From Prevotella merdae (GTDB lineage: Bacteria > Bacteroidota > Bacteroidia > Bacteroidales > Bacteroidaceae), in assembly GCF_900290275.1 (NCBI RefSeq), contig NZ_LT985323.1, forward strand, positions 413,986 to 477,985: DNA of 64,000 nt. Reading direction: 5' to 3'. Shown here in pieces: positions 41,501-60,047 of this stretch; the stretch's first letter is position 1; every line of letters begins with the position of its first letter. Both the position numbers and the translations under genes were made by a program. The notes beneath the pieces are model-generated. The model was not told where the DNA came from. It did not search any database and was given only the letters and a program-made list of their open reading frames with translations.

Positions 41501-42009
41501 GTACCAACAAGCAAACCATACTTTGTGGCAAGCAGCGAGTATACATTATGCAATGTCTTGCTCTCTATGCGTATATCGCCCATCTGCATATTACAGCTAA
41601 ACAGACCTTGAGCTCCGCCAAACCACAGCCGACCATCATAATACGTCACGGCACGAATATCGCCTTTTGCCTTCTCAGGTTGCGCTTCATAGCGTCCGTT
41701 TCTTATATTGTATACAATAAGTCCACGCTCTGTAGCCATATACAGTTTATTATGCTGCATATGTATTGAATGGATGCGTGTGTTGACAGCCGAGCCATCT
41801 GTAGCGATGTTATGTGGTATAGTGCGGTAGCCATCATATGAGTAGAGTCCGTTGTCGCTGCCAAACCACAATATACCTTGTTCGTCTTGTGCAATAGAAC
41901 ATACGGAAGAGGCGTCGGCAATACTGACATTGTCGAACTCCTGGGCTGTAACATTAGATGACAACAGCAGTGCAAAAAGCGCTACGATTGCTGTATATAG
42001 ATATCTCAT
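38599..42009 (-). CDS. Hybrid-sensor-like transmembrane AraC regulator with degenerate kinase and no receiver
   Basis: The 1136-residue protein has a signal peptide (1-22), a large periplasmic two-component-type beta-propeller with repeated LWFGS/VWIGT blades (about 25-630) and a Y_Y_Y domain (to about 730, LPSGKYTLEVREVDG). One membrane span (about 740-765) and a cytoplasmic part ending in an AraC HTH (about 1030-1130) follow. In the HisKA-like segment the usual SHELRTPL is LSRQLKQPL, with R798 at the histidine position. ATPase motifs are degraded (CIPGMII for DTGIGI; GGNTLAII for GTGLGL). No receiver lies between ATPase remnant and HTH. The frame is intact, so function is probably retained without phosphorelay. 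Confidence 0.85.
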   Translation of the reverse strand: MRYLYTAIVALFALLLSSNVTAQEFDNVSIADASSVCSIAQDEQGILWFGSDNGLYSYDGYRTIPHNIATDGSAVNTRIHSIHMQHNKLYMATERGLIVYNIRNGRYEAQPEKAKGDIRAVTYYDGRLWFGGAQGLFSCNMQMGDIRIESKTLHNVYSLLATKYGLLVGTISGLTLFRHGKAALPIRIGNGMQPLVNALLSDGNAVWIGTEGALYKYDGKHLEAVPALSGNSVKSLSAYGNLIYAGTDNGLYTYNKLNGTIVSHALHDSRSQRSIANNIVWAVFTDCWGNIWAGTDQGVSDIKRYKFFNYIPLGDITQTGDGNCLHLIYRSPDGRLWLGGTNGLISYNATKGFMPDNNGDVTWYRQNSPTHYMSHNRVRRVYSDSNGTVIICTDHGLNIYNPVTRQMRNIVVTDHSNRYNTAWAYDIVDDGKGRYWISSYMGGVFVIDKHKLLTATNPTIIADRHFLKELQGIHVWQLVTDGHGYVWARMYDSGLDRININTLHVEHIVGKDQNVNNICTDNNGNVWAAMQGEIRRFGANGKSESFCIEGYTDGAMLCEVEGNIWIFMGQDCCILNPKGTSTCFSIPGFRPLAVWYDRTSRHVLLGGNDAIVAVPTENIHNLQPKTKRPQFLLSALMVDGKPYISEYGAPTYLSEITLTARQNNLSFMLSDLPMSGKQPRMYAYRLEGVDHQWQYMHGERQEINYSALPSGKYTLEVREVDGLGKAEGMVYQLHVTILPPWYLSLWAKLLYLIIVMALIAWAVNFYMIRRRLREEREAKQQVMQESAARSAFFDNLSRQLKQPLGSLFGSILGMLHDENDTNNVRLLEKMRRDVVNMNSLVYKALDVQTISNNDKPAMITVDIADFCRRAVDDARQRYGKSLDIEYHTDAPTAFVCIDVVGMQSVLDELIVFAADNHNADMPISVSVSSAEGKTSVGICIPGMIIAKADMPFVFNRYFHVTGSKQQAGGNTLAIIHEYAEHNSGHAMVESDDKGTVVNIAFATVQTSTAHNASVSDTTVATQTPDIDSADARLLAKITETVEAHVADSDFNVTRLQETLGLGSKLLYRKVKQMTGKTPVEFIRQIRMQRAAILLREGRFSVSEVMYMVGFSNSSYFSKCFQKAYGITPTAWSTAKH

Positions 42010-45192: not shown

Positions 45193-46071
45193 TTAAACGT
45201 TCTTCACTTCCTCTGGCAATATCGGCATTGCTCCGTTTTGTGTGCAAACATATGCACTTACATGTACGGCTCGCTTATGCGCATCTGTCACCGGCATACC
45301 AGCAAGTATCGAGGCACAGAATGTACCTGTGAACGAGTCACCTGCACCAACAGTATCAGCAACCTCTACCTTAGGAGTTGGCTGGAATGACATAGAGCCT
45401 GGTGTAAATACATAACTGCCGTTCACTCCGCAAGTCAATACAAGCATATCAAGGTTGTACTTGCCAAGGATAAGCCAGCACTTGTTCTCGATATCCAAAC
45501 CTGGATAACCGAACATACGACCGATAAGTACCAATTCCTCGTCGTTGATCTTAAGCACATTGCAACGCTTCATGCTCTCGCATATTACCTCCTTGGTGTA
45601 GAAGTTCTGACGAAGGTTGATGTCGAATATCTTCATACAGTCCTTAGGAGTTGAATCAAGGAACTTGTATATCGACTCACGGCTCACTACATTGCGCTGT
45701 GCCAATGAGCCCCAGCATACAGCACGTGTGTTCTCTGATATGGCCTTAACCTCATCATTAAATGGAATATTATCCCAAGCCACATTCTCCTTGATGTCGT
45801 ATGTCGGTATACCCTCATCGTCAAGCGTTACCTGGACAGTACCTGTTGGATAAGGTACACGCGGCATACAATACTGTAGTTTTTTCTCTTCAAGCTGCTC
45901 TATGGTCTCATCAGCAAGTTTATCCTCACCAAGTGCACTAACAGCGATAGAGTTCAATCCGAACTGTCCTGCATGGAATGCAAAGTTTGCAGGAGCGCCA
46001 CCTAATTTCTTTCCCTCAGGAAGCACATCCCAGAGTGCCTCACCAAGTCCTACTACATATTTAGTATTCAT
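45193..46071 (-). CDS. PfkB-family fructokinase
   Basis: Phosphorylates fructose after import. The 292-residue protein has the PfkB signatures GGAPANFAFHAGQFG (N-terminal) and DTVGAGDSFTGTF (C-terminal, catalytic Asp). It is adjacent to a sugar permease and a GH32 fructanase, the same order as in the levan PUL of B. theta, which supports fructose as substrate. Confidence 0.92.
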   Translation of the reverse strand: MNTKYVVGLGEALWDVLPEGKKLGGAPANFAFHAGQFGLNSIAVSALGEDKLADETIEQLEEKKLQYCMPRVPYPTGTVQVTLDDEGIPTYDIKENVAWDNIPFNDEVKAISENTRAVCWGSLAQRNVVSRESIYKFLDSTPKDCMKIFDINLRQNFYTKEVICESMKRCNVLKINDEELVLIGRMFGYPGLDIENKCWLILGKYNLDMLVLTCGVNGSYVFTPGSMSFQPTPKVEVADTVGAGDSFTGTFCASILAGMPVTDAHKRAVHVSAYVCTQNGAMPILPEEVKNV

Positions 46072-46104: not shown

Positions 46105-47316
46105 TTACTGTTTAACTTTCGGAATATAAGAGAGCAGATAAACTACACCTACAGCCATTACCGCTGCTGCCCATATCTGCGGATACTGTGAGCCTGCTTC
46201 TTTAGCGGCATCGCTTGCAAAGCCCATAAAGAGCGGGAACACTGTGCCACCGAACAAGCCCATAATCATAAGACCTGATACCTCGTTCTTCTTCTCTGGT
46301 GCAGAAAGCATAGCCTGAGAGAACACGATAGAGAACACATTTGAGTTGCCATATCCTACAAGAGCGATGGCAGCCCAAAGTTCCCACTTCTCTGTACCAA
46401 ACACAAAGCCCACCATTGACAATGCCATCATAAGCACAATGATAGTGAAGAATGTGCGGATATTGAGCTTGCGCATAAGGATTGAACCAGTAAAGCAGCC
46501 CAAGGTACGGAATGCGAAGTATATAGATGTGGCATACTCAAACTGGCTAAGTGTGTCGCCTGCACCTCCAAGACGTTCAAACAGAATCTTCGGAGCTACA
46601 GCATTTGTGCCTACATCAATACCAACATGACACATGATACCAATAAACGAGAGAAGGATAATTGGCGATCCAAGCATCTTCAGACAGTCTACAAAGCCAG
46701 ATGCCTTGCCCTCAATAGGCTCTTCCTCAATGTTAGTCATACCGAGCCATAGTGTAGCTACCATACCAACAATAAAGAACAAGAGGAACAATATGCGCCA
46801 ACTCAATCCAAAGATAGGAGCTGTTGTTGTTGCGCCCCATGCTGCTATAAGCGGAGCTATGAACGAGGCTATCGCCTTAACAAACTGTCCGAAGGTAAGT
46901 GTTGAAGCCAAATGACCCTTTACAAGCATCGTAACCAACGGGTTGATTGAGGTCTGCATAATGGCATTGCCTATACCAAGGAGCGAGAATGATATGTACA
47001 TAAGCCAAAGCTGGCTCTCTTTGGTAGGCATAAAGCTATCGAAGAGTGGCAGGAACACTGCCAATGTTGTTATCACAATAGAGAGGAGTACTGTCTTCTT
47101 ACGACCAATCTTATTCATCAGCATGCCCGTAGGCACAGAGAATATAAGAAACCAGAAGAATACAAGCGAAGGAAAGAAGTTGGCTGCCGAATCAGAAAGT
47201 CCAAAGTCTTCCTGCATGTTGTTCGACACTGAGCCGACTAAGTCGACAAATCCCATAGTGAAGAATGTTATCATCACTGGGACAAGTGTGAGTTTACTTG
47301 AGTTTGAATTGCTCAT
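46105..47316 (-). CDS. MFS sugar permease, FHS/FucP-like (probable fructose transporter)
   Basis: Inner-membrane proton-sugar symporter. The 403-residue protein has twelve hydrophobic spans and the MFS loop motif NKIGRKKTVLLS between spans two and three. It starts MSNSNSSKLTLVPVMITFFTMGF. It is 33 nt upstream of fructokinase on the same strand. Substrate inferred from the fructan context. Confidence 0.88.
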   Translation of the reverse strand: MSNSNSSKLTLVPVMITFFTMGFVDLVGSVSNNMQEDFGLSDSAANFFPSLVFFWFLIFSVPTGMLMNKIGRKKTVLLSIVITTLAVFLPLFDSFMPTKESQLWLMYISFSLLGIGNAIMQTSINPLVTMLVKGHLASTLTFGQFVKAIASFIAPLIAAWGATTTAPIFGLSWRILFLLFFIVGMVATLWLGMTNIEEEPIEGKASGFVDCLKMLGSPIILLSFIGIMCHVGIDVGTNAVAPKILFERLGGAGDTLSQFEYATSIYFAFRTLGCFTGSILMRKLNIRTFFTIIVLMMALSMVGFVFGTEKWELWAAIALVGYGNSNVFSIVFSQAMLSAPEKKNEVSGLMIMGLFGGTVFPLFMGFASDAAKEAGSQYPQIWAAAVMAVGVVYLLSYIPKVKQ

Positions 47317-47502: not shown

Positions 47503-49227
47503 TTACTTAAGATTATAAACCACGTACTTGCCCTTGCCCTTAAGCGTAACCTTGTTGTAAGATTTGGTAGGGAACACAAGGTTGGTCATTGCCATACGGC
47601 CCTCAGCATCAAAAGCCTCGATGCTGCTCTTGTCTATAAACAGACGCAACTGCGACATCTTTCCGTGTACAGGTGCTTTTGTCACAACTGCAAAGTCGTC
47701 GCTAAAGTCTTTCAGTCCGCTATTTGTGCGGTCCATAGCAAAGGTGTTGTTCTTCTCGTCATATACCATAACCACCTTCTCGCCCTTATCGTTCGACAAT
47801 GTAAGTGTGGCGCTGCCCTTAAGCGAAACCACTACCTCACAAGTCTCTGTCAGATTCTTCGTAGCTTTCTTTGCACGTGCGGCAGTTAGTTCAGGCGATG
47901 GAGTTACACCGCAATATATATCGCCATTGTATTCGTAAAGGTCAAGATCGCGTGGTATAGAGTTGCCCGAACGATACTGCATTGTTGGCACCTGGTTGGC
48001 ATATTGCCAATTGCTCATCCATGCCATAGCTACACGTCGTCCATCAGGAGCGTTATCAAATGTAACAGTAGCATAATGGTCCTTGCCATAATCCATCCAT
48101 TTTGTTACCTCAGGCTTGGTGTCGCATGTAAACTTCTTTCCGTCAAAGTCGCCAACAAAGTATTGTGTAGCCGAACCACCGAATGGGCCTCCAGGATTAA
48201 TGTTACAAATAAGCATCCATTTGTACTTGTCGGTACCGCGTACCTTCATCTTCATAAGGTCAGGACATTCCCATACACCACCATGATTGCCATACTCAGC
48301 ACCAAACTGACTCTCAAGAGTCCATTCCTTCAGATTGTCAGACGTATAGATATTCATATGCTGTCCCTCAGCAAGAATCATGTTCCACTTCTTTATATCC
48401 TCATTCCAGAACATGTGAGGGTCGCGGAAGTCGGGTGTGTTGCTCGTAATCACAGGGTTGCCAGCATATTTTGTAAAAGTCTTTCCATTGTCGGTGCTGT
48501 AAGCAAGGCTCTGTGTCTGGTTCTCGCCTGCCGATGTATACATAGCCACAACAGAACCATTGCCAAATCCGGCAGTATTGTTATGGTCTACTACAGCCGA
48601 ACCAGAGAATATTGTACCCCAAGCATCAGGTTCAACAGCCTTGCCCTCAAACTTCCAGTGCATAAGGTCGGTAGATGTGGAATGTCCCCATGTCATGTTC
48701 TCCCATTGCGAGCCATAGGGATTAAACTGGTAGTAAAGATGCCATACACCATCCTTATAGAACATACCGTTAGGATCGTTCATCCATCCATAAGCTGGAG
48801 TGTGATGATAGACGGGACGATACTGCTCTGTATTTGTCATGTCGTATGAGTCGGCATACTTCATGTTCTTCCAGCATGTAAAGCTCGAAACACCACCATC
48901 GTTACGATAGGTGCCATTGACATGAATGTCGAGAGAGATGTTCTTGCTGTTCTTGTACTCGCTGATGTAGAGCGGCACATAATAGTCGATGTGGTTTGAA
49001 GCGAGACGGATGTTGAATGCCTTCACCTGACTGTTGCCGTCAATCACCTTTATATTACATATCTCTGCCTTCTCTTGCACCGGCAGAAGAAGCACTTTCT
49101 GTGAGTTGTCTACACGGTAGATGCAGTGGTTGTTGCTAAGGAAATTAGCCTGTTGTGCCGAGGCAGCCATTGCAAGCCCCAATACAAACGATGTTGCCGC
49201 TGTACGGCTGAATAAATTCTTTTTCAT
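47503..49227 (-). CDS. GH32 fructanase, secreted (levanase/inulinase type)
   Basis: Hydrolyses beta-fructans to fructose, probably in the periplasm. The frame opens at 49257, but the ATG at 49227 gives 574 residues with a proper signal peptide (MKKNLFSRTAATSFVLGLAMAAS, cleavage after SAQ). GH32 motifs are WMNDPNGMFY (nucleophile Asp), FRDPHMFW (transition-state Asp) and WECPDLMKM (acid/base Glu). An N-terminal module of about 100 residues precedes the propeller. It lacks a lipobox, in contrast to the GH32 at 58512. Confidence 0.93.
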   Translation of the reverse strand: MKKNLFSRTAATSFVLGLAMAASAQQANFLSNNHCIYRVDNSQKVLLLPVQEKAEICNIKVIDGNSQVKAFNIRLASNHIDYYVPLYISEYKNSKNISLDIHVNGTYRNDGGVSSFTCWKNMKYADSYDMTNTEQYRPVYHHTPAYGWMNDPNGMFYKDGVWHLYYQFNPYGSQWENMTWGHSTSTDLMHWKFEGKAVEPDAWGTIFSGSAVVDHNNTAGFGNGSVVAMYTSAGENQTQSLAYSTDNGKTFTKYAGNPVITSNTPDFRDPHMFWNEDIKKWNMILAEGQHMNIYTSDNLKEWTLESQFGAEYGNHGGVWECPDLMKMKVRGTDKYKWMLICNINPGGPFGGSATQYFVGDFDGKKFTCDTKPEVTKWMDYGKDHYATVTFDNAPDGRRVAMAWMSNWQYANQVPTMQYRSGNSIPRDLDLYEYNGDIYCGVTPSPELTAARAKKATKNLTETCEVVVSLKGSATLTLSNDKGEKVVMVYDEKNNTFAMDRTNSGLKDFSDDFAVVTKAPVHGKMSQLRLFIDKSSIEAFDAEGRMAMTNLVFPTKSYNKVTLKGKGKYVVYNLK

Positions 49228-49291
49228 ATTTTTATATAGGTTTTTAGAATTATCCAAAAATAGCGTGAGCTGTAGATAGTTGATTTCTGCT

Positions 49292-49459: not shown

Positions 49460-51700
49460 ATGAAAACCAAAACTTACAACACATTATTTATAATGTTGGC
49501 AGTGCTTATACTCGCCACTGGTTGCACCAGCAACTATAAATATAAGATAGGTGTATCGCAATGTGTGGGTGGACGCTGGCGCGAGAAAGCCAACATTGAG
49601 ATGCTTTCTGCACAACATCTATACGACACCGACGTAAAAGTGATCATTAAGAATGCCGACAACAGAAACGAGCGGCAATGTCTTCAAATAGACAGCCTCA
49701 TCAACGAGGGTGTCGACCTGCTTGTGGTTTCGCCAAACGACTATCATGCTCTGAATGGAAGTTTGCAACATGCCCGCGACAAGAACATTCCTATAATTTT
49801 CTTCGACCGTACTACAGCCATGAAAGACTATACAGCCTATATAGGCGGCGACAACATTGAGGCAGGACGCAAGATGGCGGAATACGCAGCAATGCTATGT
49901 CGCGATAGTGTAAAGACGGAAGGACGACAACCTATAGTATTAGAGATGACAGGACCGCTTGAGATATCACCTGCCGCACAACGACATAAAGGTTTCAGCG
50001 AAGCCATTAGCCGTTATTCAGATATCGACTACCATCATGTGCCAAGCAAGTGGTCGTATGACGATTGCAAGCGCATCATGCAAGAATGGCTAAAAGAAGG
50101 CAAGACCGTAGATGTAGTGTTTTGCCATAGCGACCTTGCAGCTATTGGTGCCTATGAGGCTGCCAAAAAATTTCATAAGGAACGCGACATTCATTTCATT
50201 GGTATTGACGGACTACCTGGCGAGGGTATAGACGCTGTGCAAAAAGGACAACTCTCTGCATCATACATATATCCTACTCATGGCGAGGAAGTTATAGCTC
50301 TTGCCTTGCGTATACTTGAAGGAAAACCCTTTGAACGTGTGAACAACATGAAGAGCTTTGTTGTAACGCCTCAAAATGTTGCAGACATATCGCTGAGCAG
50401 CAACTCATTGATGAAACAGAACCAATATCTTGCAACAATACAGTCGAAACTCGAGACTTATCTCGGTTTCTATCACATCCAGCGCTCACTACTCATCGTG
50501 GCATTCCTCGTAATACTGCTATTGGCAGTGGCTGTTGCAACCACATGGCGTGCCGTAAAGGTCACACGTCGTGCTAACCGTCGTATGCGTGAGTTGAATG
50601 ACGAACAGACACGTTTCTTTACAAACGCATCACACCAGTTGCGCACTCCACTTACACTTATAGCCGGACCCATAAACCAACTTGCCGAAGGCAAAGGTGA
50701 CAAACAACAACTCATCGACATTATTCAACGCAATGTGGGACAACTACAAAGACTTATAAGTGACGTACTTTTGTTCCGTCGCGAGAACCGCGCTACTGTT
50801 GACGACACGACCGCAACTACTAATGAGCAACTAACAGCAAGCCGCAAGTCAGTACAAGACTGTCGTCATGACATTCTTGTAAATAACAATGCCGACGAAC
50901 TCGCTACAGTGCTTATCGTGGATGACAATGCCGACATGCGTGCCTATCTGCGCACTCTACTACTCGACCGCTACTATGTAATAGAGGCTGCCGACGGACA
51001 GAGCGGACTTAAACTTGCCGTAGAGAGTGTGCCCGACATAGTGGTGTCGGACGTGATGATGCCAGTAATGGACGGACTTACTTTCTGTACACGCCTTAAG
51101 CAGCATGAGGCAACAAGCCACATTCCAGTGCTTCTGCTTACTGCACGCAGCAGCGAGCAACAATATATCGAAGGATTGCAGACTGGAGCCGACATGTATA
51201 TGACAAAACCGTTCAGTGCCGAACTGCTTCTTGCCAACATAGCCTCGCTACTTGCCAATCGCCAGAAACTACGCCAATTGTTCAAAACTCAAAATTCCTC
51301 ATCGGAGTTACCGACAATTCTTGCTCTGGCAAGCGGCAAAAGCCGAGCGCAACATTCAACATCCATTTCGCCCGACCGCAGATTCCTTGACACCTTCCTC
51401 AAGGCTATGGATAAGCACATGAGCAACACCAACCTCAAGATAGAGGTTATAGGCGACGAAATAGGACTCTCACGCGTTCAGCTCTACCGCAAGGTTAAAG
51501 CCCTCACGGGCATGACTCCTATAGAGATACTGCGCGAAACAAGACTGAAACGAGCCATGCAGCTGCTAAAGACAACCGACAAGACAGTATCAGAAATAGC
51601 CAACGAAGTGGGATTTGCCACTCCAGGCTACTTCTCGTCATGCTTCAAAAAGCAGTATGACAAGTATCCAACGGATGTAAGAGAGGAAATGAAGGTTTAA
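49460..51700 (+). CDS. Fructan-type hybrid regulator: periplasmic-binding sensor, HisKA, receiver, AraC HTH, without HATPase domain
   Basis: The 746-residue protein has an N-terminal signal/anchor with a lipobox-like LATGC. A type I periplasmic-binding sensor follows (about 28-315, IGVSQCVGGRWREKANIEM, as in the fructose sensor BT1754), then a membrane span (about 343-363) and a HisKA segment with H392 in NASHQLRTPLTLI. After LLFRREN (about 446) only some 37 residues of Ser/Thr/Asp-rich linker precede the receiver (about 483-600, D488, D489, phospho-acceptor D531). The HATPase catalytic domain of about 150 residues is absent. The AraC HTH is intact (about 640-742). No frameshift is visible. 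Confidence 0.9.
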   Translation: MKTKTYNTLFIMLAVLILATGCTSNYKYKIGVSQCVGGRWREKANIEMLSAQHLYDTDVKVIIKNADNRNERQCLQIDSLINEGVDLLVVSPNDYHALNGSLQHARDKNIPIIFFDRTTAMKDYTAYIGGDNIEAGRKMAEYAAMLCRDSVKTEGRQPIVLEMTGPLEISPAAQRHKGFSEAISRYSDIDYHHVPSKWSYDDCKRIMQEWLKEGKTVDVVFCHSDLAAIGAYEAAKKFHKERDIHFIGIDGLPGEGIDAVQKGQLSASYIYPTHGEEVIALALRILEGKPFERVNNMKSFVVTPQNVADISLSSNSLMKQNQYLATIQSKLETYLGFYHIQRSLLIVAFLVILLLAVAVATTWRAVKVTRRANRRMRELNDEQTRFFTNASHQLRTPLTLIAGPINQLAEGKGDKQQLIDIIQRNVGQLQRLISDVLLFRRENRATVDDTTATTNEQLTASRKSVQDCRHDILVNNNADELATVLIVDDNADMRAYLRTLLLDRYYVIEAADGQSGLKLAVESVPDIVVSDVMMPVMDGLTFCTRLKQHEATSHIPVLLLTARSSEQQYIEGLQTGADMYMTKPFSAELLLANIASLLANRQKLRQLFKTQNSSSELPTILALASGKSRAQHSTSISPDRRFLDTFLKAMDKHMSNTNLKIEVIGDEIGLSRVQLYRKVKALTGMTPIEILRETRLKRAMQLLKTTDKTVSEIANEVGFATPGYFSSCFKKQYDKYPTDVREEMKV

Positions 51701-51770
51701 TTTTACGTAACAAAAAAGAAAAAACTCAACATTTTTGACTATACTGTCAACGATTGTTGCATGTAACATG

Positions 51771-51805
51771 AGTGATATTTTGTGAACGATTCATGAAATA
51801 TCACT
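51771..51805. promoter_or_regulatory. 35-bp dyad upstream of the fructan susC promoter
   Basis: AGTGATATTT-N15-AAATATCACT with an inner TGAA-CGA-TTCA sharing the same centre (51788). It ends 14 nt before the -7 box and is followed by a T-rich run. It could be an operator or the terminator of the upstream regulator gene. Confidence 0.6.
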
Positions 51806-51941: not shown

Positions 51942-54900
51942 ATGAAGAAAGCAAAAGTAGCTTTAGTAAGTATGCTCATGCTTGCCGGTTCTAGCATTTA
52001 TGCTCAGACCAACGGCATCAACGGAACGGTGACCGACAACACGGGTGAGCCTATCATTGGTGCATCAGTTAAAGTTAAGGGTTCCTCAAATATGGGCACT
52101 GTTACCGATATTGACGGTAACTTCAAACTCAATGTAAAACCCGGCGAAACCCTTATCATTTCTTATATAGGATGTAAGGATCAGGAGGTAAAAGCAGGCG
52201 AGAATCTTAAGATTGTGCTCCAAGACAACTCTGAGGTATTGGGCGAAGTAGTTGTAACTGGTTATCAAGTGCAGCGTAAGGCCGACTTGACTGGTTCTGT
52301 ATCAGTAGTAAGCACAAAAGACCTAAAATCGTCAGCAGATACCGACCCTATGCGCTCTTTGCAAGGCAAGGTGCCAGGCATGACTATCACTACCGACGGT
52401 TCGCCTATTGGCACTGGTACTGTTCGTATACGTGGTATTGGCTCATTCAACTCTTCACAAGATCCATTGTTTGTTATTGATGGAGTGCCTACAACTACAG
52501 CCCTCAACTCGCTCAACATGAACGACATTGAGAGTATGCAAGTACTCAAGGATGCCGCATCTGCATCAATATATGGCTCACGTGCTGCCAATGGTGTAAT
52601 TATTATTACCACCAAAAAAGGCAAGAAGGGCAGCAAACTCAATGTAGACTTCTCGACAAACCTCACTGCACAATTCTACAACTCGCAGTCGATGATGAAG
52701 CTCTGCAATACACGCGAGTATGCTACAGCTATGGCACAAGCTGCCCTCAACGATGGCATCGACCCTGTGGCTTATGCCCGTAACTATGGTCTCGATCTCA
52801 ACGCATCCAGCGGACGCACTATCAAGGCATACGACCCTTCTACTGGTAACTATAACACATATACTGTCAATGGTATATACGATGGTTACATCAATGCCAA
52901 GAAAACAATGCGTATATCGGATACCGATTGGCTTGACGAGATATCACGCACTGGCTTTATGCAGAGCTACGACCTCTCCCTTTCTGGAGCTACAGACAAG
53001 TTTACCGGACTCTTGTCTGCCGGATACAAGAAGAACGACGGTATATTAAAATACTCCAACTTCGAGAACTTCTCAGCACGATTCAACTCTACATACAATG
53101 TTAACAAGATAGTAAGTGTAGGCGAGAATGCAACTGTCACCTACTCAAAGCAAGTTGATTGCGCTCCTATGGAGAATGCACTGAAGATGTCACCTACCGT
53201 ACCCGTGTACGAAGAAGATGGAACAACATTCGGAGGTCCGGTTGGTGGCATGAGCGACCGTCAGAACCCTTTGCGCGAGATGTATATGAACCGCGATAAT
53301 GCCTTGAAGATATGGCGTGTTTTCGGTAATGCTTACGTTGACGTAAAACCGCTCAAGGGTCTTATGCTCCGCTCAAACTTCGGTCTCGACTACTATCACT
53401 CGTTCATTCACTCAATGAGCCACACCTTCAAGTCGGACATTGTGAACAATGATATTCCGAGCACCACACTCTCTGCCCACGATGACGTGCGTTGGACATG
53501 GAGTAATACAGCCAACTACAACTTCAAGATAGCACGCGACCACGACTTCACGGTGCTTGCTGGTATGGAGTTGCACAAGCAGACTGTAGAGGATATGGGA
53601 GCATATGCACAAACATTCGCAATTGAAGACAAGGACTATATGTGGCCAGATGCCGCAACTGGTATTGAGAGAGCAACAGGTATTGGTTCTGGATACACAT
53701 TGGCATCATTCTTCGGAAAGGTTGACTACAACTGGCAAGACCTTGTTCTCGCATCATTCACCATACGTCGTGACGGTAGCTCACGTTTTGGCAAGAACAA
53801 CCGTTATGGTAACTTCCCCGCTGCTACACTTGGCTATCGTCTTTCGAAGAACCTCAAGGCATCATGGATAGACGATCTTAAGATTCGTGCATCATGGGGT
53901 AAGACTGGTAACCAAGAAATATCCAACACAGCGCTCTACGGCTTGTATGTTGCCGATTATGGCTCTGACCGTGTAACATCTACCGCATACGACCTCTACC
54001 GTCAAGGCACTGGCATTTTCCCATCAGGCTTCCGCGCCACACAGACAGCCAACGACAACCTGAAATGGGAAACCACAATACAATATAACGTTGGTGCCGA
54101 CTTCTCTTTGTTCAACCAGGAACTCTACGGAACTGTCGATGCTTATATTAAAGATGTAAAGGATATGCTCATATCACCCGCATATCTCGGTGCAATGGGT
54201 GAGGGTGGTGCAAGTTGGTCGAATGGTCCATCACTGCGCAATATAGGTATGGAGGCTAACGTTGGCTATCGTCATACTACAAAGTATGGTCTACGCTATG
54301 ACGTATCTGCCAATATCGACTTCTTCCGCAACAAGGTTACATACCTACCTTCTACAACCACAGGTTCGTATGCACATACAATGAAGGAGAACCTTGTACA
54401 GTCAAAGAAGCCTTATGGCTCTATAGTGGGATACGTTGTTGACGGACTTTTCCAAAGTCGCGAAGAGGTACTTGCCTCAGGTCAGCCTAATGCCCGTATA
54501 GGCGGACTTAAGTATGCCGACCTTGATGGTAATGGCTCTATTGATGCCAACGACCAAACTTGGATTTATAATCCTGTACCTAATTTCAACTGGGGCTTGA
54601 ACGTGTCGCTTGGATATAAGAACTTCGACCTCTCAATGTTCTTCCAGGGCGTGTGCGGTGTAGACGTATACAACAATCAGAAATTCCAGACAGACTTCTG
54701 GAGCATAACAGACGCTGGAAGCAACAAGGGCAACCGCCTGCTTGGAGCATGGACCCAAGACAACACATCGTCAACAATTCCTGCGCTCACAACCAACAAT
54801 ACGGGCGACGAGGGACGTGCATCATCATACTTCGTAGAGCATGGCAACTGGATGAAGCTTCGCTCACTGCAAGTAGGCTACAACTTCAGCGACTCATTGC

Positions 54901-55058
54901 TGAAGAAGCTCAACATGACATCGGCTCGTGTATATGTTTCAGGTCAGAACCTCTTCACATGGAAGAGCAACAGCTTCACCATATCCGACCCAGAGAATTC
55001 CAACTGGGCTTATCCACACTCTTCATCAGTGTCGTTCGGACTACAGGTTGGCTTCTAA
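51942..55058 (+). CDS. SusC-like TonB-dependent transporter (fructan PUL)
   Basis: Outer-membrane importer of fructo-oligosaccharides. The 1038-residue protein has a signal peptide (1-22, IYAQ), a carboxypeptidase-like domain (INGTVTDNTGEPIIGASV), a TonB-plug region (VVVTGYQVQRKADLTGSV, VLKDAASASIYGSRAANGVIII) and a beta-barrel closing on aromatic VSFGLQVGF. It pairs with the downstream susD-like gene. Confidence 0.96.
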   Translation: MKKAKVALVSMLMLAGSSIYAQTNGINGTVTDNTGEPIIGASVKVKGSSNMGTVTDIDGNFKLNVKPGETLIISYIGCKDQEVKAGENLKIVLQDNSEVLGEVVVTGYQVQRKADLTGSVSVVSTKDLKSSADTDPMRSLQGKVPGMTITTDGSPIGTGTVRIRGIGSFNSSQDPLFVIDGVPTTTALNSLNMNDIESMQVLKDAASASIYGSRAANGVIIITTKKGKKGSKLNVDFSTNLTAQFYNSQSMMKLCNTREYATAMAQAALNDGIDPVAYARNYGLDLNASSGRTIKAYDPSTGNYNTYTVNGIYDGYINAKKTMRISDTDWLDEISRTGFMQSYDLSLSGATDKFTGLLSAGYKKNDGILKYSNFENFSARFNSTYNVNKIVSVGENATVTYSKQVDCAPMENALKMSPTVPVYEEDGTTFGGPVGGMSDRQNPLREMYMNRDNALKIWRVFGNAYVDVKPLKGLMLRSNFGLDYYHSFIHSMSHTFKSDIVNNDIPSTTLSAHDDVRWTWSNTANYNFKIARDHDFTVLAGMELHKQTVEDMGAYAQTFAIEDKDYMWPDAATGIERATGIGSGYTLASFFGKVDYNWQDLVLASFTIRRDGSSRFGKNNRYGNFPAATLGYRLSKNLKASWIDDLKIRASWGKTGNQEISNTALYGLYVADYGSDRVTSTAYDLYRQGTGIFPSGFRATQTANDNLKWETTIQYNVGADFSLFNQELYGTVDAYIKDVKDMLISPAYLGAMGEGGASWSNGPSLRNIGMEANVGYRHTTKYGLRYDVSANIDFFRNKVTYLPSTTTGSYAHTMKENLVQSKKPYGSIVGYVVDGLFQSREEVLASGQPNARIGGLKYADLDGNGSIDANDQTWIYNPVPNFNWGLNVSLGYKNFDLSMFFQGVCGVDVYNNQKFQTDFWSITDAGSNKGNRLLGAWTQDNTSSTIPALTTNNTGDEGRASSYFVEHGNWMKLRSLQVGYNFSDSLLKKLNMTSARVYVSGQNLFTWKSNSFTISDPENSNWAYPHSSSVSFGLQVGF

Positions 55059-55163: not shown

Positions 55164-56903
55164 ATGAAAAATCTATATAAATATATATTTGCAGCAATGT
55201 TTACACTCGGTACTACAACATCATGCAGCGACTTCCTTGACGAGTCACCTAAGGGAGTTATTGACAAGGACAAGGCATTCAGCCGTCCCGACCAAATGGT
55301 TACTTCAGCATACGCTATGCTCGGCGATTGCTGGTATTCTTATCCATTCAACCTTTGGCCATACGGTGATTTGGCTTCAGACGACTGTCTGAAAGGAGGT
55401 TCAGGCACTACCGACACAGGCTATCACCCAATGGAGATATGGTCTACCATGACCTCTACACCAGGCGAGTTTGACGAGCTTTGGTATCGTCTCTTTTGTG
55501 CCGTGAGCCGTTGCAACCGTGCCTTGCTCTCGCTTGAGCAATATGGCAACGACAAACTCGGCGAAGAAACATGCAAGCAACGTGTAGCCGAAGTGAAGTT
55601 CCTCCGTGCCCACTTCTACTATAAATTGATAACCATGTTCCGTCAAGTGCCTTGGATTGACGAGAATGTTACAGCCAACAATCTCCAAGAACAAACTCGT
55701 AACGACGAATTCACATACGAGGAATTGTTCGGCAAGATTATCAATGACTTTAAGGAGGCTTACGACGTGCTACCCGATGTGCAGACCGACAAGAATAGAG
55801 TGAACAAGATAGCTGCTGCTTCATACCTTGCCAAGTGCTATCTCACCCTTGCCTATGGAGACGGCTACGAAGCTACCAACGGCTACGACCATATCAACAA
55901 GGATTATATGCAGAAGGTGGTGGAATACACCAAGGTGGTGAAGGACGACCCCAACTATGGCTATCTTGAGGATTATGGTGACATCTTCCTTCCTGAAGAA
56001 AAGAACAGTAAGGAGAGTATATTTGCAGTACAGACTTCTGACTACAAGGAAGACAACACCACCTACGGACGCGCCAACTGGAGCAATATGCTTAATGGAG
56101 TATGGGGTATGTGGTCGTGCGGATGGGATTTCCACAAACCATCACAGGATCTTGTTAACGCATTCAAGACAAAGAACGGTTTGCCTGAGTTTGACGATTA
56201 CAACAAGACCATCGACTATCCTATCAATGGCAGTCCAAACGCTCAGAAATGGGATCCACGTTTGTTCCATACCGTCGGTATGCCTACTTTCCCATACAAG
56301 TATGAAAAGGAATACACCCTCACAAAGGCAAATAGCCGCACACCTAACACTTACGGCTACTACTGCTCTATGAAGGAAGTTCCGCAGCGCTCTAAAGGTG
56401 AGACCTACGATGGCTCATGGCAGGCATTCGCCATGAACGACTATGTGTTCCGCTACACCGATGTTATGCTTATGCGTGCAGAGGCTCTAATCGAGACCGA
56501 CAACCTTTCAGAGGCCCGCACTATTATTAACGACATCCGTCAACGTGCAAAGAACTCTGTAGACAAGCACATTGCTTATGCCGAAAACCAGTGTGAGATA
56601 GCTCTCTATCCAGAGACTTACTTCCAGGACAAAACTACAGCACGCAAATGTCTGCGCTGGGAACGTCGATTGGAACTTGCTATGGAGAACGGACGCTACT
56701 TTGACCTGCGCCGTTGGGGTATAGCTTCTGAGACACTCAACGCTTACTTCGCAAAGGAACAGAACGATGTATACGACGGACAGACATACGCTCAATACTT
56801 GAAGGATGCTCACTACACACCCGGCAAGAACGAGTTCTATCCGATACCATACAACCAGCTCTACTACGTTCCTGGACTGTACAAACAGAACAAGGGATAC
56901 TAA
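55164..56903 (+). CDS. SusD-like nutrient-binding lipoprotein (fructan PUL)
   Basis: Surface lipoprotein partner of the SusC channel. The 579-residue protein has a lipobox (TTTSCSDFLDESPKG, Cys about 20), the FLRAHFYYKLITMFRQVPWI helix, MRAEALIETDNLSEARTIINDIRQRA and the C-terminal WERRLELAMENGRYFDLRRWG and FYPIPYNQL motifs of the family. Confidence 0.95.
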   Translation: MKNLYKYIFAAMFTLGTTTSCSDFLDESPKGVIDKDKAFSRPDQMVTSAYAMLGDCWYSYPFNLWPYGDLASDDCLKGGSGTTDTGYHPMEIWSTMTSTPGEFDELWYRLFCAVSRCNRALLSLEQYGNDKLGEETCKQRVAEVKFLRAHFYYKLITMFRQVPWIDENVTANNLQEQTRNDEFTYEELFGKIINDFKEAYDVLPDVQTDKNRVNKIAAASYLAKCYLTLAYGDGYEATNGYDHINKDYMQKVVEYTKVVKDDPNYGYLEDYGDIFLPEEKNSKESIFAVQTSDYKEDNTTYGRANWSNMLNGVWGMWSCGWDFHKPSQDLVNAFKTKNGLPEFDDYNKTIDYPINGSPNAQKWDPRLFHTVGMPTFPYKYEKEYTLTKANSRTPNTYGYYCSMKEVPQRSKGETYDGSWQAFAMNDYVFRYTDVMLMRAEALIETDNLSEARTIINDIRQRAKNSVDKHIAYAENQCEIALYPETYFQDKTTARKCLRWERRLELAMENGRYFDLRRWGIASETLNAYFAKEQNDVYDGQTYAQYLKDAHYTPGKNEFYPIPYNQLYYVPGLYKQNKGY

Positions 56904-56994: not shown

Positions 56995-58500
56995 ATGAAA
57001 ACAAGGATTTCTAATATATTTATATTATTGGCTATCGTGCTCTTATCCGCCTGCCAAAGCAACGACTACGACCGTAGCGACATGATAGTCAGCGCACCCG
57101 ATGCCTCATCCATAACAGGCCAGTTACAGCACGACGACTATGTATGGCAATGGAATGCTCTGCCTGATGGTGAGAGTATGCAGATAGCCACCTACCGCGA
57201 TGGTACACTTACCTCCACCGAGGTTGCTTCTGGTAATACTTACGTTCAGAAAAATGTACCAACAAACGTTAAGTTTGAGTATGTGTTCAAGGTTACTGAC
57301 GGCACAAATGTTTCATCTGGAGTAGTGAAAGAATACACCCGCGAGGGAGCTACATCTATCACAAATCTATCAATGAAGCAGGTTGATGTTAGCGATGGTT
57401 ACAATGCCGAGATAACATGGAGCAAGGCAACTGACGCTACAAGCTTGCTACTTACCGCCACCAATGGTATTCGCAACATTAGCGAGACTCTCGATGCTGG
57501 TGCTACATCATACACCATCAACAACGTTTCAGACGGCGATACATGGAACGTTACAATTGTTGCCGTAAACGATAAGGGCACAGCACTTGCCACATCATCG
57601 TCGCTGCGTATAGGCAAGACTACCATTGGATTCCTCAGCACTTATGCTACTGCAGACGAACTGATACAGAATGGTGATGACGATGAGGCTTCGGCATGGC
57701 TTTGGCTACATAGCCAGTATGCTTCTGCCAAGTTTGTATCGTTCAAAGATATCCATTCTACTGCCGACCTTGCACAGTTCCGCGTACTATTCTGGATACG
57801 CGACATTGAGACAGGTAATGAGGCTGATGTATGGAACATTCCTTCAAATGTACTCGCAGCAACACCTGCAATACGCCAATGGTACAAGGATGGCGGCAAC
57901 CTGCTGCTTTGGGGACATTCTACTGTATATATAGGTACACTTGGACGCATCCCTACTGATATGCTGCAGAACAACGACAAGAACATTGGATGTGCAGCTG
58001 GTGGATATAATGGAGACGTGTGGAAGATGGCTGTACAACTTAATCCTGGCGGTAAGTTCAGTATTGACATGTCGTCACACCCTATATACAACGGCATTGA
58101 CGTAGAACAGACCGACCGTACCAAACTTATAGCCGTGAAGGGACCAGGCTGGACTGAAGACCACAACTGTCTATTCTTCAACATACCTGCTGTACTAACC
58201 GGACAAGGCAATCAAGAAATGGCTTGCTACAGCATATTGACCGACACATATGGAATATATCCACTCGCTACATGGGATTCACAGATTGACTGGGTTTCAC
58301 AGCTCAATATATGGGAGGCTCGTCAGGGCAATACCGACTTCAAAGGCACTGTACTCTGCATTGGTAATGGTGGTTGCGAATTCTCAATGAAGAACGACAA
58401 CGGCACACCAAACATAAGTGCTTATCCTAAGAACAATGTATATCAGGACAATGTGCTTAAACTTGCAAAGAACAGCCTTGAATATCTCAAAACAAGATAA
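56995..58500 (+). CDS. DUF4960-type surface glycan-binding lipoprotein (fructan PUL)
   Basis: Predicted levan/inulin-binding lipoprotein occupying the SusE/F position, comparable in place and type to BT1761. The 501-residue protein has a lipobox (LLSACQSND), two Ig/fibronectin-like modules (to about 200) and a C-terminal DUF4960-like domain with GNEADVWNIPSNVLAATPAIRQWYKDGG and LLLWGHSTVYIGTLGRIP. Binding function is inferred from locus position. Confidence 0.82.
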   Translation: MKTRISNIFILLAIVLLSACQSNDYDRSDMIVSAPDASSITGQLQHDDYVWQWNALPDGESMQIATYRDGTLTSTEVASGNTYVQKNVPTNVKFEYVFKVTDGTNVSSGVVKEYTREGATSITNLSMKQVDVSDGYNAEITWSKATDATSLLLTATNGIRNISETLDAGATSYTINNVSDGDTWNVTIVAVNDKGTALATSSSLRIGKTTIGFLSTYATADELIQNGDDDEASAWLWLHSQYASAKFVSFKDIHSTADLAQFRVLFWIRDIETGNEADVWNIPSNVLAATPAIRQWYKDGGNLLLWGHSTVYIGTLGRIPTDMLQNNDKNIGCAAGGYNGDVWKMAVQLNPGGKFSIDMSSHPIYNGIDVEQTDRTKLIAVKGPGWTEDHNCLFFNIPAVLTGQGNQEMACYSILTDTYGIYPLATWDSQIDWVSQLNIWEARQGNTDFKGTVLCIGNGGCEFSMKNDNGTPNISAYPKNNVYQDNVLKLAKNSLEYLKTR

Positions 58501-58511
58501 TAGAATATATT

Positions 58512-60047
58512 ATGAACAAATCGATTTTTATTATAACCTGTTGTCTATTTGCCGCAACATCGTTTGTGGCGTGTACCGACTCAAATTCGGAGGGCGAGAT
58601 AGAATTGCCAACCGCTCCCACTACACCCGACACTCCTGATACTCCCAATCAGCCATCTGATGATAACTATACGGAGCAGTACCGTCCACAAATACATTTC
58701 ACTCCAGCCAAGAATTGGATGAATGACCCTAATGGTCTTGTATATCTTGACGGCACATATCATATGTTCTACCAATATAACCCTAAGAGCAATGATTGGG
58801 GAAACCTAAGTTGGGGACACAGCACATCTACCGACCTTATACACTGGACAGAGAAGAACGTTGCTCTATCACCCGACGAACTTGGTATGATATTCTCTGG
58901 TTCGGCTGTGATAGACAAGGACAATACAGCCGGATTCGGAAAGAATGCTATTGTTGCTATATATACGTCAGCCGATGCATATCAGCAGCAAAGTCTTGCA
59001 TATAGCACTGACGGAGGTGCTACATTCCAAAAGTATGAAGGCAATCCTGTGATTAAGAATACCGAATTGGCTGACTTCCGCGACCCGAAAATATTCTGGC
59101 ACGATGACTCTAAGCAATGGATTATGTCGCTGGCATTAGGATGGCAATACGGTATACAGTTCTGGGCATCAAAGGACTTGAAGAACTGGACTAAACTCTC
59201 TACATTCACAACTTCTATAAGTAGATGCAACCGTGGACAGTGGGAGTGTCCTGACCTTTTACAGATGGATTATAATGGCACCAAGAAGTGGGTGCTCATA
59301 GTAAGTGTCAATCCTGGTGGCCCCACCATAGGAAGTGGTACAATGTATTTTGTAGGCGATTTTGACGGCAATAAGTTCACAGCCGACGCACTCGATTATC
59401 CGTTATGGCTTGATTATGGTGCCGACAACTATGCTGGCGTTACATGGAGCAACACACCTGGTCGTACTGTTTATATAGGATGGATGAACAACTGGCAGTA
59501 TGCTGGAGCTTCTCCTGTATCACCATGGCGTTCGGCATTTACTTTACCACGTGAACTGTCATTGCACGAATACAACGGCAAACCGCTTTTATACAGCAAT
59601 GTGGTAAAGGAACTTGAGGCTTCTGCAAGCGAATGGAAAGAACTTACAGCTAATGCTTTTGATGCCGCCAATGCCTATGAGGTAGAACTGACAATGCCTA
59701 TAGACAATGATGCCGAGATATCTCTTGTCAATAAAGAGGGCGAACACCTCGACTACACACTAAATGCTGCCACAAACAGCATTATTGCCCATCGCAACAA
59801 TCAGACTGGCAAAACTTCGTTCAACGGCAACTTCTCGTTGCCATCGGTAATAGCACCGCTCAATACCGAGGGCAATAGCGTAACACTACGCCTTTATATC
59901 GACCAGTCGTCTGTAGAATTGTTTACTGGCAACGGGTCCATGGCACAAACCTTGCTTGTATATCCTAAGAGTATATACAATAGCATAACCATCAATGGCA
60001 AGCCAGCCACTGGACGCGTACGTACTATAAAGTCGATATGGAAATAA
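58512..60047 (+). CDS. GH32 fructanase, surface lipoprotein (endo-levanase position)
   Basis: Extracellular beta-fructan hydrolase; by position it matches the endo-levanase BT1760. The 511-residue protein has a lipobox with lipid Cys C21 (SFVACTDSNSEGEIE, acidic export-type signal), a Pro/Thr/Asp linker (33-50), the propeller with D72 in NWMNDPNGL, ADFRDPKIFW and WECPDLLQM, and a C-terminal beta-sandwich (LRLYIDQSSVELF). Endo mode and linkage preference cannot be read from the sequence. Confidence 0.93.
   Translation: MNKSIFIITCCLFAATSFVACTDSNSEGEIELPTAPTTPDTPDTPNQPSDDNYTEQYRPQIHFTPAKNWMNDPNGLVYLDGTYHMFYQYNPKSNDWGNLSWGHSTSTDLIHWTEKNVALSPDELGMIFSGSAVIDKDNTAGFGKNAIVAIYTSADAYQQQSLAYSTDGGATFQKYEGNPVIKNTELADFRDPKIFWHDDSKQWIMSLALGWQYGIQFWASKDLKNWTKLSTFTTSISRCNRGQWECPDLLQMDYNGTKKWVLIVSVNPGGPTIGSGTMYFVGDFDGNKFTADALDYPLWLDYGADNYAGVTWSNTPGRTVYIGWMNNWQYAGASPVSPWRSAFTLPRELSLHEYNGKPLLYSNVVKELEASASEWKELTANAFDAANAYEVELTMPIDNDAEISLVNKEGEHLDYTLNAATNSIIAHRNNQTGKTSFNGNFSLPSVIAPLNTEGNSVTLRLYIDQSSVELFTGNGSMAQTLLVYPKSIYNSITINGKPATGRVRTIKSIWK

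What the first reader, a model, noticed from the sequence alone, without database searches (positions are those of the whole stretch)
49460..51700. Fructan-type hybrid two-component regulator with HisKA and receiver but no HATPase domain
Seen: intact frame with sensor, one membrane span, HisKA with H392, receiver with D531, AraC HTH. Between LLFRREN (about 446) and the receiver (about 483) there are only about 37 residues, where about 150 residues of HATPase (N, G1, F, G2 boxes) belong. Known: the B. theta homologue type (BT1754) carries HisKA plus HATPase. Inference: it cannot autophosphorylate. It may work by direct conformational signalling, or be phosphorylated by another kinase in trans. 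The acceptor residues are kept, which argues for phosphotransfer from elsewhere.
Basis: partly seen in the sequence, partly recalled or inferred. Interest (0 to 1): 0.75.

Follow-up and report, generated by a model that had tools for sequence, protein, structure and literature searches.

The report
Sugar-sensing regulator without its kinase engine
A gut bacterium's fructan-sensing control protein has lost the part that makes phosphate signals yet keeps the parts that receive them, and many relatives share this layout, so it looks like a stable, working design rather than a sequencing error.

Summary
Confirmed: the 746-aa protein at 49460-51700 has sugar sensor, membrane span, HisKA, receiver and AraC HTH, but no HATPase_c. 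It is not an assembly error: the 120 best database homologues (97-100% identical) lack PF02518, and 120 distinct HATPase-less relatives were collected. In all 120, His392, Thr(+4), receiver Asp531 and Lys583 are invariant although synonymous codons vary. The acid after the His, needed for kinase but not phosphatase activity in tested HisKA proteins (PMC3510030), is Gln in 48 of 49 proteins of the window's clade, but acidic in 40 of 40 HATPase-bearing relatives. The receiver keeps the SHIP loop linked to phosphate-relieved inhibition of the HTH (PMC11253607). Best model: phosphate comes from acetyl phosphate or another kinase, and the sensor gates a phosphatase-type DHp. Unexpected: 34 relatives have lost HisKA and receiver too (sensor-membrane-HTH). 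In the window's clade 29 of 30 of these share its operator, and two stand before the same fructan operon. Output can therefore apparently run without phosphotransfer; the family looks like a stepwise conversion of a hybrid two-component system into a one-component membrane regulator.

The parts
49460..51700 (+). HATPase-less hybrid regulator, 746 aa (Peripla_BP_4 - TM - HisKA - Response_reg - AraC HTH)
49460..49525 (+). N-terminal hydrophobic signal with lipobox-type Cys22 (possible lipid anchor; prediction only)
   Evidence: lipobox-like pattern in the first 70 aa of 96 of 118 HATPase-less, 31 of 38 full and 31 of 34 PBP-HTH proteins; C22 invariant in the 40-row alignment A1
49541..50476 (+). 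periplasmic sugar-binding sensor (residues 28-339), related to the solved sensor 2x7x (recalled to be the BT1754 sensor)
   Evidence: E=1.6e-54
50492..50560 (+). single membrane span (about residues 345-367, read from the sequence), inside one long predicted helix 307-409
   Evidence: sequence; AlphaFold2 model
50606..50782 (+). HisKA/DHp domain (residues 383-441); phospho-acceptor H392 (50633-50635), Q393 in place of acid (50636-50638), T396 (50645-50647)
50789..50905 (+). short linker (residues 444-482) where the HATPase_c domain is missing
   Evidence: no invariant linker column in 49 clade-A or 71 other HATPase-less relatives
50909..51241 (+). receiver (residues 484-594); D531 (51050-51052), D488/D489, T561, K583; SHIP loop 553-556 (51116-51127)
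51455..51685 (+). AraC-type DNA-binding domain HTH_18 (residues 666-742)
51749..51791 (+). putative operator (AACGATTGTTGCATGTAACAT ... GAACGATT) upstream of susC, shared with HATPase-less and HisKA/receiver-less relatives
51942..55058 (+). SusC-like TonB-dependent receptor, first gene of the presumed target operon
55164..56903 (+). SusD-like protein (SusD_RagB)
56995..58500 (+). DUF4960 protein downstream of SusD (called SusE in my scripts)
58512..60047 (+). glycoside hydrolase family 32 (fructan hydrolase family)
47503..49257 (-). glycoside hydrolase family 32, divergent to the regulator
46105..47316 (-). MFS transporter
45193..46071 (-). PfkB-family sugar kinase (likely fructokinase)

Best explanation
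A genuine, widely conserved HATPase-less hybrid two-component regulator of the fructan operon. Shown: it has no kinase catalytic domain, keeps a DHp with the sequence signature of a kinase-dead, phosphatase-competent HisKA (H-Q-L-R-T), and keeps a fully equipped receiver with the inhibitory-type SHIP loop. Inferred: the receiver holds the AraC domain off the susC operator until Asp531 is phosphorylated by a donor from outside the protein (acetyl phosphate, or another kinase). Sugar binding, passed down the long TM helix, switches the DHp from dephosphorylating the receiver (no sugar, off) to sparing it (sugar, on), and may also reposition the HTH pair directly.
For: No HATPase_c. In 120 of 120 HATPase-less relatives H392, T396, P397, D531 and K583 are invariant, T561 in 119 (1 Ser), and both pocket positions 488/489 are D or E in 120, while synonymous codons vary (H392 CAC 72/CAT 46; D531 GAC 75/GAT 43, of 118). 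The linker has no invariant column. His+1 is Q or M in 49 of 49 clade-A proteins but D/E in 40 of 40 HATPase-bearing ones. In CrdS and three other HisKA proteins that acid is needed for kinase, not phosphatase, activity (CrdS E372Q keeps phosphatase), and the +4 N/T is needed for phosphatase (PMC3510030, abstract and passages). The DHp construct of HK853 shows phosphatase activity, reduced by H260A (PMC5727384, passages). [S/C]HIP is kept in 118 of 120; in Bacteroides HTCS it goes with receiver inhibition of the HTH relieved by phosphorylation, and purified HTCS receivers are phosphorylated by the small molecule PAM (PMC11253607, abstract, sections and passages). Acetate kinase and phosphotransacetylase families match in 5 of 5 sampled genomes. 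HATPase_c lies in no frame under 300 aa in 4 of 5 genomes, and no full-length sibling with this sensor type was found in 14 of 18.
Against: Thirty-four relatives lack HisKA and receiver altogether, and 29 of 30 in clade A keep the operator, so phosphate is not strictly needed for output. Outside clade A the acid is kept in 51 of 71 HATPase-less proteins, so a phosphatase-only DHp cannot be the whole family's story. The two closest relatives with genomes, G717 and G772, do have a full-length HTCS sibling within about 10 kb. The authors of PMC11253607 note that small-molecule phosphorylation is not always physiologically significant. No phosphatase activity, phosphodonor or ligand was measured, and the AlphaFold2 DHp is of low confidence (pLDDT about 52-63).
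Confidence: 0.45

Rival explanations
1. Direct conformational signalling: sugar binding rearranges the dimer and positions the AraC domains on DNA; the DHp and receiver are a structural spacer and brake and phosphate is irrelevant.
For: Relatives with sensor-TM-HTH only (34 distinct) use the same operator (29 of 30 in clade A), and two of them (L145, L156) stand directly before the orthologous fructan operon (SusC 71-72% identical). The 67-row tree needs at least 6 changes of this label on supported branches. One predicted helix runs from sensor through the membrane in both models.
Against: A passive spacer should not keep His, Thr, the acidic pair, Asp, Thr/Ser and Lys in 120 of 120 proteins whose HisKA is on average 59% identical pairwise within each group.
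Confidence: 0.22
2. Trans-phosphorylation: another histidine kinase or full-length HTCS, perhaps in a mixed dimer, phosphorylates H392 or D531.
For: His invariant in 120 of 120. Outside clade A the acid next to His is kept in 51 of 71. The five genomes tested hold 10-47 HATPase_c places, kinases and other GHKL proteins together. Split kinases exist (PMC3591291, abstract). A full-length sibling is linked in G717 and G772.
Against: The kinase-essential acid is lost in clade A (49 of 49). No full-length sibling with this sensor type was found in 14 of 18 genomes (in six of the 18 only 49 of 52-79 candidates were scored, and G763 has a 200-aa fragment of one). No HATPase frame under 300 aa in 4 of 5 genomes; G002 has four, of 143-291 aa. 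The window itself holds no second sensor of this type.
Confidence: 0.25
3. A decaying pseudogene-like kinase, or a sequencing/assembly deletion.
For: The domain is missing.
Against: Invariant catalytic residues with varying synonymous codons, open frames over the whole length (118 complete ones collected, though the collection took open frames by design), occurrence in named strains and on many contigs.
Confidence: 0.02

Closest known systems
BT1754-type hybrid two-component system (HTCS) of Bacteroides thetaiotaomicron
   Same: Peripla_BP sensor related to 2x7x, one span, HisKA, receiver with SHIP loop, AraC HTH, position before a SusC/D-GH32 fructan locus
   Different: HATPase_c is absent and the acid next to the phospho-His is Gln (BT1754's own sequence was not fetched; its domain order is recalled)
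HisKA DHp domains acting as phosphatase without kinase function: HK853 DHp, CrdS E372Q (PMC3510030, PMC5727384, passages); EnvZ DHp (recalled; seen only as a reference title)
   Same: His and Thr/Asn(+4) present without kinase function; H-Q-x-x-T matches a tested kinase-minus phosphatase-plus substitution
   Different: those are laboratory fragments or mutants; here the form is natural and fused to its receiver and HTH; activity not shown
Split histidine kinases, CheA3/CheA4 of Rhodobacter sphaeroides (PMC3591291, abstract and section list seen)
   Same: phospho-acceptor domain without its own ATPase domain
   Different: no dedicated partner carrying the ATPase domain was found
Transmembrane (one-component) transcription regulators, TTRs (PMC10269533, passages seen)
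   Same: membrane-bound sensor-HTH protein; the 34 reduced relatives fit this class
   Different: the window protein still carries HisKA and receiver (that paper calls such proteins hybrid TTRs)
BT4236, an HTCS with Gln at the phospho-His site (PMC11253607 section 14)
   Same: natural HTCS suggested to work without normal phosphotransfer
   Different: there the His is replaced and the contact motif deviates (CSIP-EK); here His and SHIP are kept and the ATPase domain is lost

Membership tests
Hybrid two-component system (HTCS) | HisKA domain | tested here: met
   PF00512, 4.2e-13, residues 383-441
Hybrid two-component system (HTCS) | HATPase_c catalytic domain | tested here: not met
   no hit up to E=10; none in 9 of 9 relatives; absent from the 120 best homologues' domain lists; no HATPase_c at the regulator's place in 5 of 5 genomes
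Hybrid two-component system (HTCS) | receiver with phospho-acceptor Asp and pocket residues | tested here: met
   PF00072 94.3 bits; D531, D488/D489, T561, K583
Hybrid two-component system (HTCS) | AraC/HTH_18 output and periplasmic sensor with membrane span | tested here: met
   PF12833 74 bits, PF13407 139.3 bits; helix through the span
Hybrid two-component system (HTCS) | S/CHIP receiver loop of the REC-DBD interface | tested here: met
   SHIP 553-556; 118 of 120 HATPase-less proteins. The partner D and K in the HTH were not tested correctly.
Hybrid two-component system (HTCS) | ATP-dependent autophosphorylation | not testable with these tools
   expected absent from the missing domain
HisKA phosphatase-type DHp | His and Thr/Asn at +4 kept | tested here: met
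   120 of 120
HisKA phosphatase-type DHp | phosphatase activity on the receiver | not testable with these tools
   needs biochemistry
Split histidine kinase | a partner protein bearing the ATPase domain | tested here: inconclusive
   no HATPase frame under 300 aa in 4 of 5 genomes, four (143-291 aa) in G002; full-length sibling in 4 of 18; unrelated kinases not excluded
One-component transmembrane transcription regulator | sensor, membrane span and HTH in one chain without phosphotransfer domains | tested here: not met
   window protein keeps HisKA and receiver; the feature is met by 34 relatives (Pfam on L145)

The most novel reading that the evidence does not exclude
A natural stepwise dismantling of a phosphorelay receptor. 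The full kinase-receptor lost its ATPase domain (at least twice, or once with regain), becoming a sugar-gated phosphatase-receiver that reads cellular acetyl phosphate, so that fructan genes answer to both sugar and carbon/energy status. Within that lineage HisKA and receiver were then discarded, at least twice, giving a one-component membrane regulator that uses the same operator and in places the same operon.
Probability: 0.3. Interest if true: 0.8.

Novelty: new variant of a known kind. Interest (0 to 1): 0.62.

Why it matters
How HTCS pass the signal and act on DNA from the membrane is described as largely undetermined (PMC3404733, passages). This family supplies natural deletions: related sensors and HTH domains with the whole phosphorelay, without the ATPase domain, or without any phosphotransfer domain, the latter two sharing an operator. 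Swapping them in one operon would test what each domain does. It is also a caution for annotation: a search that demands a histidine kinase domain will miss these regulators. For instance, the inulin locus of Segatella copri DSM18205 was reported without a contiguous HTCS gene (PMC11784079, passages); whether a reduced form sits there was not checked.

Tried and rejected
Assembly error: rejected as very unlikely. Degenerate ATPase remnant in the linker: none. My early idea that the acid after the His is lost in every HATPase-less protein (from 12 loci) was wrong: with 120 proteins it is kept in 51, all outside clade A. The idea that the neighbouring degenerate HTCS at 38599-42009 supplies the kinase in trans was dropped: its HATPase_c scores below cut-off and its H-box reads LSRQLKQP, Arg for His by eye. 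In one search I read the DK part of the REC-DBD motif at residues 707-708, the wrong place (the paper puts D in helix 6 and K in helix 8), so that test is discarded and only the SHIP counts are used. The shared deletion junction (EE[QE] then F[YF] vestige in 30 of 30 clade-A PBP-HTH proteins) may mean one deletion spread by recombination rather than the 6 label changes the tree asks for; that label is also almost as scattered as shuffled labels (24 of 500 shuffles as low). The 4 PBP-HTH proteins outside clade A lack the vestige, so at least two deletions. The operator pattern was first picked by eye from both classes, so the profile trained on HATPase-less loci only is not fully independent. 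The first profile was too long for loci where the motif lies close to the stop codon and passed the 99% shuffle threshold in 19 of 30; the shortened one passed it in 30 of 30 and every shuffle in 29 of 30. Pfam over 40 HATPase-less members lists only the 25 commonest of 77 families, so it gives no exact zero; two searches were added for that. No fold search was made.

Full report
Observation. The gene at 49460-51700 is intact and encodes 746 aa. Pfam finds a Peripla_BP_4 sensor, HisKA (383-441), Response_reg (484-594) and HTH_18 (666-742), and no HATPase_c up to E=10. The sensor is related to the solved sensor 2x7x (E=1.6e-54) and the receiver-HTH half to 12aw, a hybrid two-component protein (E=3.9e-59). 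The DHp ends near residue 443 and the receiver begins at 484. Neighbours are a TonB-dependent SusC-type receptor, SusD, a DUF4960 protein, two GH32 hydrolases, an MFS transporter and a PfkB kinase, so a fructan locus is very likely.

Not an artefact. The 120 best of 5105 database homologues (97-100% identical, 744-753 aa) all lack PF02518 in their precomputed domain lists; one stands for 78 contigs. Of the 80 genome loci kept, L001-L012 carry short forms, including Prevotella ruminicola KHT3 and Hoylesella loescheii An865; Pfam on eight of these twelve and on L087 finds no HATPase_c at E<=1 in 9 of 9. In whole genomes, 126 of 398 sampled from the genus of G001 match at E<=1e-95, about 105 (hand count of listed rows; list cut) with a match running across the missing region, the others with partial, mostly sensor-side matches. 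Wider samples gave 12 of 399 genomes at E<=1e-100 (family of G001) and 18 of 297 at E<=1e-95 (family of G005).

Three architectures. From 244 sequences held (243 loci and the window), 229 sensor-fused regulators were found with HMMs built here; 194 remained after removing identical copies: 120 HATPase-less, 40 full, 34 sensor-HTH only. Only open frames were collected, so broken copies would not be seen. His-to-Asp spacing is 133-161 aa (HATPase-less) against 295-332 aa (full); the local HATPase profile scores at most 3.7 bits on the 120 and at least 76.7 on the 40. Pfam on 32 relatives of the third class found sensor and HTH_18 in 32 of 32, with neither HisKA nor Response_reg among the 25 commonest of 41 families; L145 has neither at E<=1.

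Conservation. In 120 of 120 HATPase-less proteins H392, T396, P397, D531 and K583 are unchanged; T561 in 119 (1 Ser); positions 488 and 489 are D or E in 120. Mean pairwise identity of HisKA is 0.59 in each group, the linker has no invariant column, and synonymous codons vary at the invariant residues, which points to purifying selection rather than recency. The residue after the His is acidic in 40 of 40 full forms. In HATPase-less forms it is Q in 63, E in 50, D in 1, R in 3, and K, S, M in one each; in the window's clade A it is Q in 48 and M in 1 of 49, elsewhere D/E in 51 of 71. In CrdS and three other HisKA proteins this acid is needed for kinase but not phosphatase activity (E372Q of CrdS keeps phosphatase), whereas N/T at +4 is needed for phosphatase (PMC3510030, abstract and passages). 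The DHp construct of HK853 shows phosphatase activity that drops with H260A (PMC5727384, passages); the EnvZ precedent (Zhu 2000) was seen only as a reference title and is otherwise recalled.

Receiver. [S/C]HIP is kept in 118 of 120 HATPase-less proteins (2 SHVP). Gao and colleagues show for Bacteroides HTCS that this motif goes with an interface by which the unphosphorylated receiver restrains the DNA-binding domain (PMC11253607, abstract, sections 7, 13, 14 and passages). The retained receiver thus still looks like a phosphate-relieved brake.

Source of phosphate. In 4 of 5 genomes with this regulator no HATPase_c lies in a frame under 300 aa; G002 has four, of 143, 150, 274 and 291 aa. A full-length HTCS with this sensor type was found in 4 of 18 genomes (G156, G590, G717, G772); in six of the 18 only 49 candidates were scored, and G763 has a 200-aa fragment. 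In G717 and G772, the closest relatives with genomes, the sibling lies within about 10 kb; in G717 it follows genes whose homologues lie in another cluster of the window. Acetate kinase and phosphotransacetylase matches are present in 5 of 5 genomes. Acetyl phosphate and promiscuous phosphotransfer from other HTCS are both possible; neither is shown, and the HTCS authors warn that small-molecule phosphorylation is not always physiologically significant.

Natural loss of the rest. In the IQ-TREE of 67 of 194 rows (sensor+HTH; five long-branched loci and most near-copies left out) the window's clade is supported (100/98) and holds HATPase-less and sensor-HTH forms only; the sensor-HTH label needs at least 6 changes on supported branches, though it is nearly as scattered as shuffled labels (24 of 500 as low). 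Full forms also lie beside the second HATPase-less group, so the ATPase domain was lost at least twice or lost and regained (all 194 rows by FastTree). All 30 clade-A sensor-HTH proteins share a vestige of the HisKA start and the 4 others do not, so at least two deletions occurred; recombination among paralogues could explain the rest.

Operator. Between the regulator's stop and susC lies AACGATTGTTGCATGTAACAT-N-GAACGATT (51749-51791). The first 21 bases occur once in 64 kb with up to 3 mismatches, against 0 in 100 shuffles, and are repeated exactly in L145, which carries a sensor-HTH regulator. A profile built from HATPase-less loci only (24 blocks) exceeded every shuffle in 29 of 30 clade-A sensor-HTH loci, 2 of 4 others, 10 of 71 clade-B HATPase-less and 4 of 40 full loci; leave-one-out within clade-A HATPase-less loci gave 38 of 49, so 11 of 49 show no such site in the stretch read. 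The pattern was chosen by eye from both classes, a mild circularity.

Context, for members on loci over 9 kb only: clade-A HATPase-less 15 of 49, with SusC within 9 kb in 15 and GH32 in 8; clade-A sensor-HTH 23 of 30, SusC in 23, GH32 in 3; full 36 of 40, GH32 in 30; other HATPase-less 47 of 71, SusC in 38, GH32 in 15; other sensor-HTH 3 of 4, SusC in 3. Most clade-A sensor-HTH forms stand before a different SusC (39-47% identical to the window's), but L145 and L156 stand directly before the window-type fructan operon (SusC 71-72%); HATPase-less forms L004, L007, L008 and L205 occur near the other type.

Models. AlphaFold2 gives a continuous helix from sensor through membrane into the DHp (307-409), a low-confidence DHp (pLDDT about 52-63), a disordered linker 440-479 and better receiver and HTH. 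The sensor-HTH relative L003:288-1823 shows a helix 296-373 followed by disorder and HTH. Both are monomer models.

Conclusion. The feature is real and a variant of HTCS, not a full member, since a defining domain fails. The best mechanism is a sugar-gated DHp phosphatase acting on its own receiver with phosphate from elsewhere (0.45), with trans-kinase (0.25) and purely conformational signalling (0.22) as rivals; the sensor-HTH relatives are the strongest evidence for the last. I saw no report of HATPase-less HTCS or of this series in the listings and opening abstracts (open-access library only), nor in the passages read; most of the listed papers were not opened.

Noticed in passing
window 38599-42009 (-): A second HTCS-like gene (Reg_prop, Y_Y_Y, HisKA, HATPase_c, AraC HTH; 1136 aa) with Arg at the phospho-His position by eye (LSRQLKQP), HisKA and HATPase_c below Pfam cut-offs (20.6 of 26.9 and 20.5 of 26.4 bits) and no receiver: a likely pseudokinase regulator.
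   Followed up: partly
L088, L097-L100, L145, L156 and others; 34 distinct proteins: Sensor-TM-AraC proteins lacking HisKA, HATPase and receiver but sharing sensor, HTH and, in the window's clade, operator with the window regulator.
   Followed up: yes
window 49460-49525; whole family: Lipobox-type Cys (C22) at the N-terminus of a membrane-spanning regulator in most family members, suggesting the sensor may also be lipid-anchored.
   Followed up: partly
L191 6625-8829 and 9327-11621 (-): Two HATPase-less regulators side by side in genome G776.
   Followed up: no
L148 and L158: Pairs of divergently oriented sensor-HTH genes, one of the window's clade and one of the other group.
   Followed up: no
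L199, L200, L216, L229 intergenic regions: Long leaders between some clade-B regulators and susC contain a shared GGTGTGGACTG ... GTCCACACC element not seen in the window's intergenic stretch (by eye).
   Followed up: no
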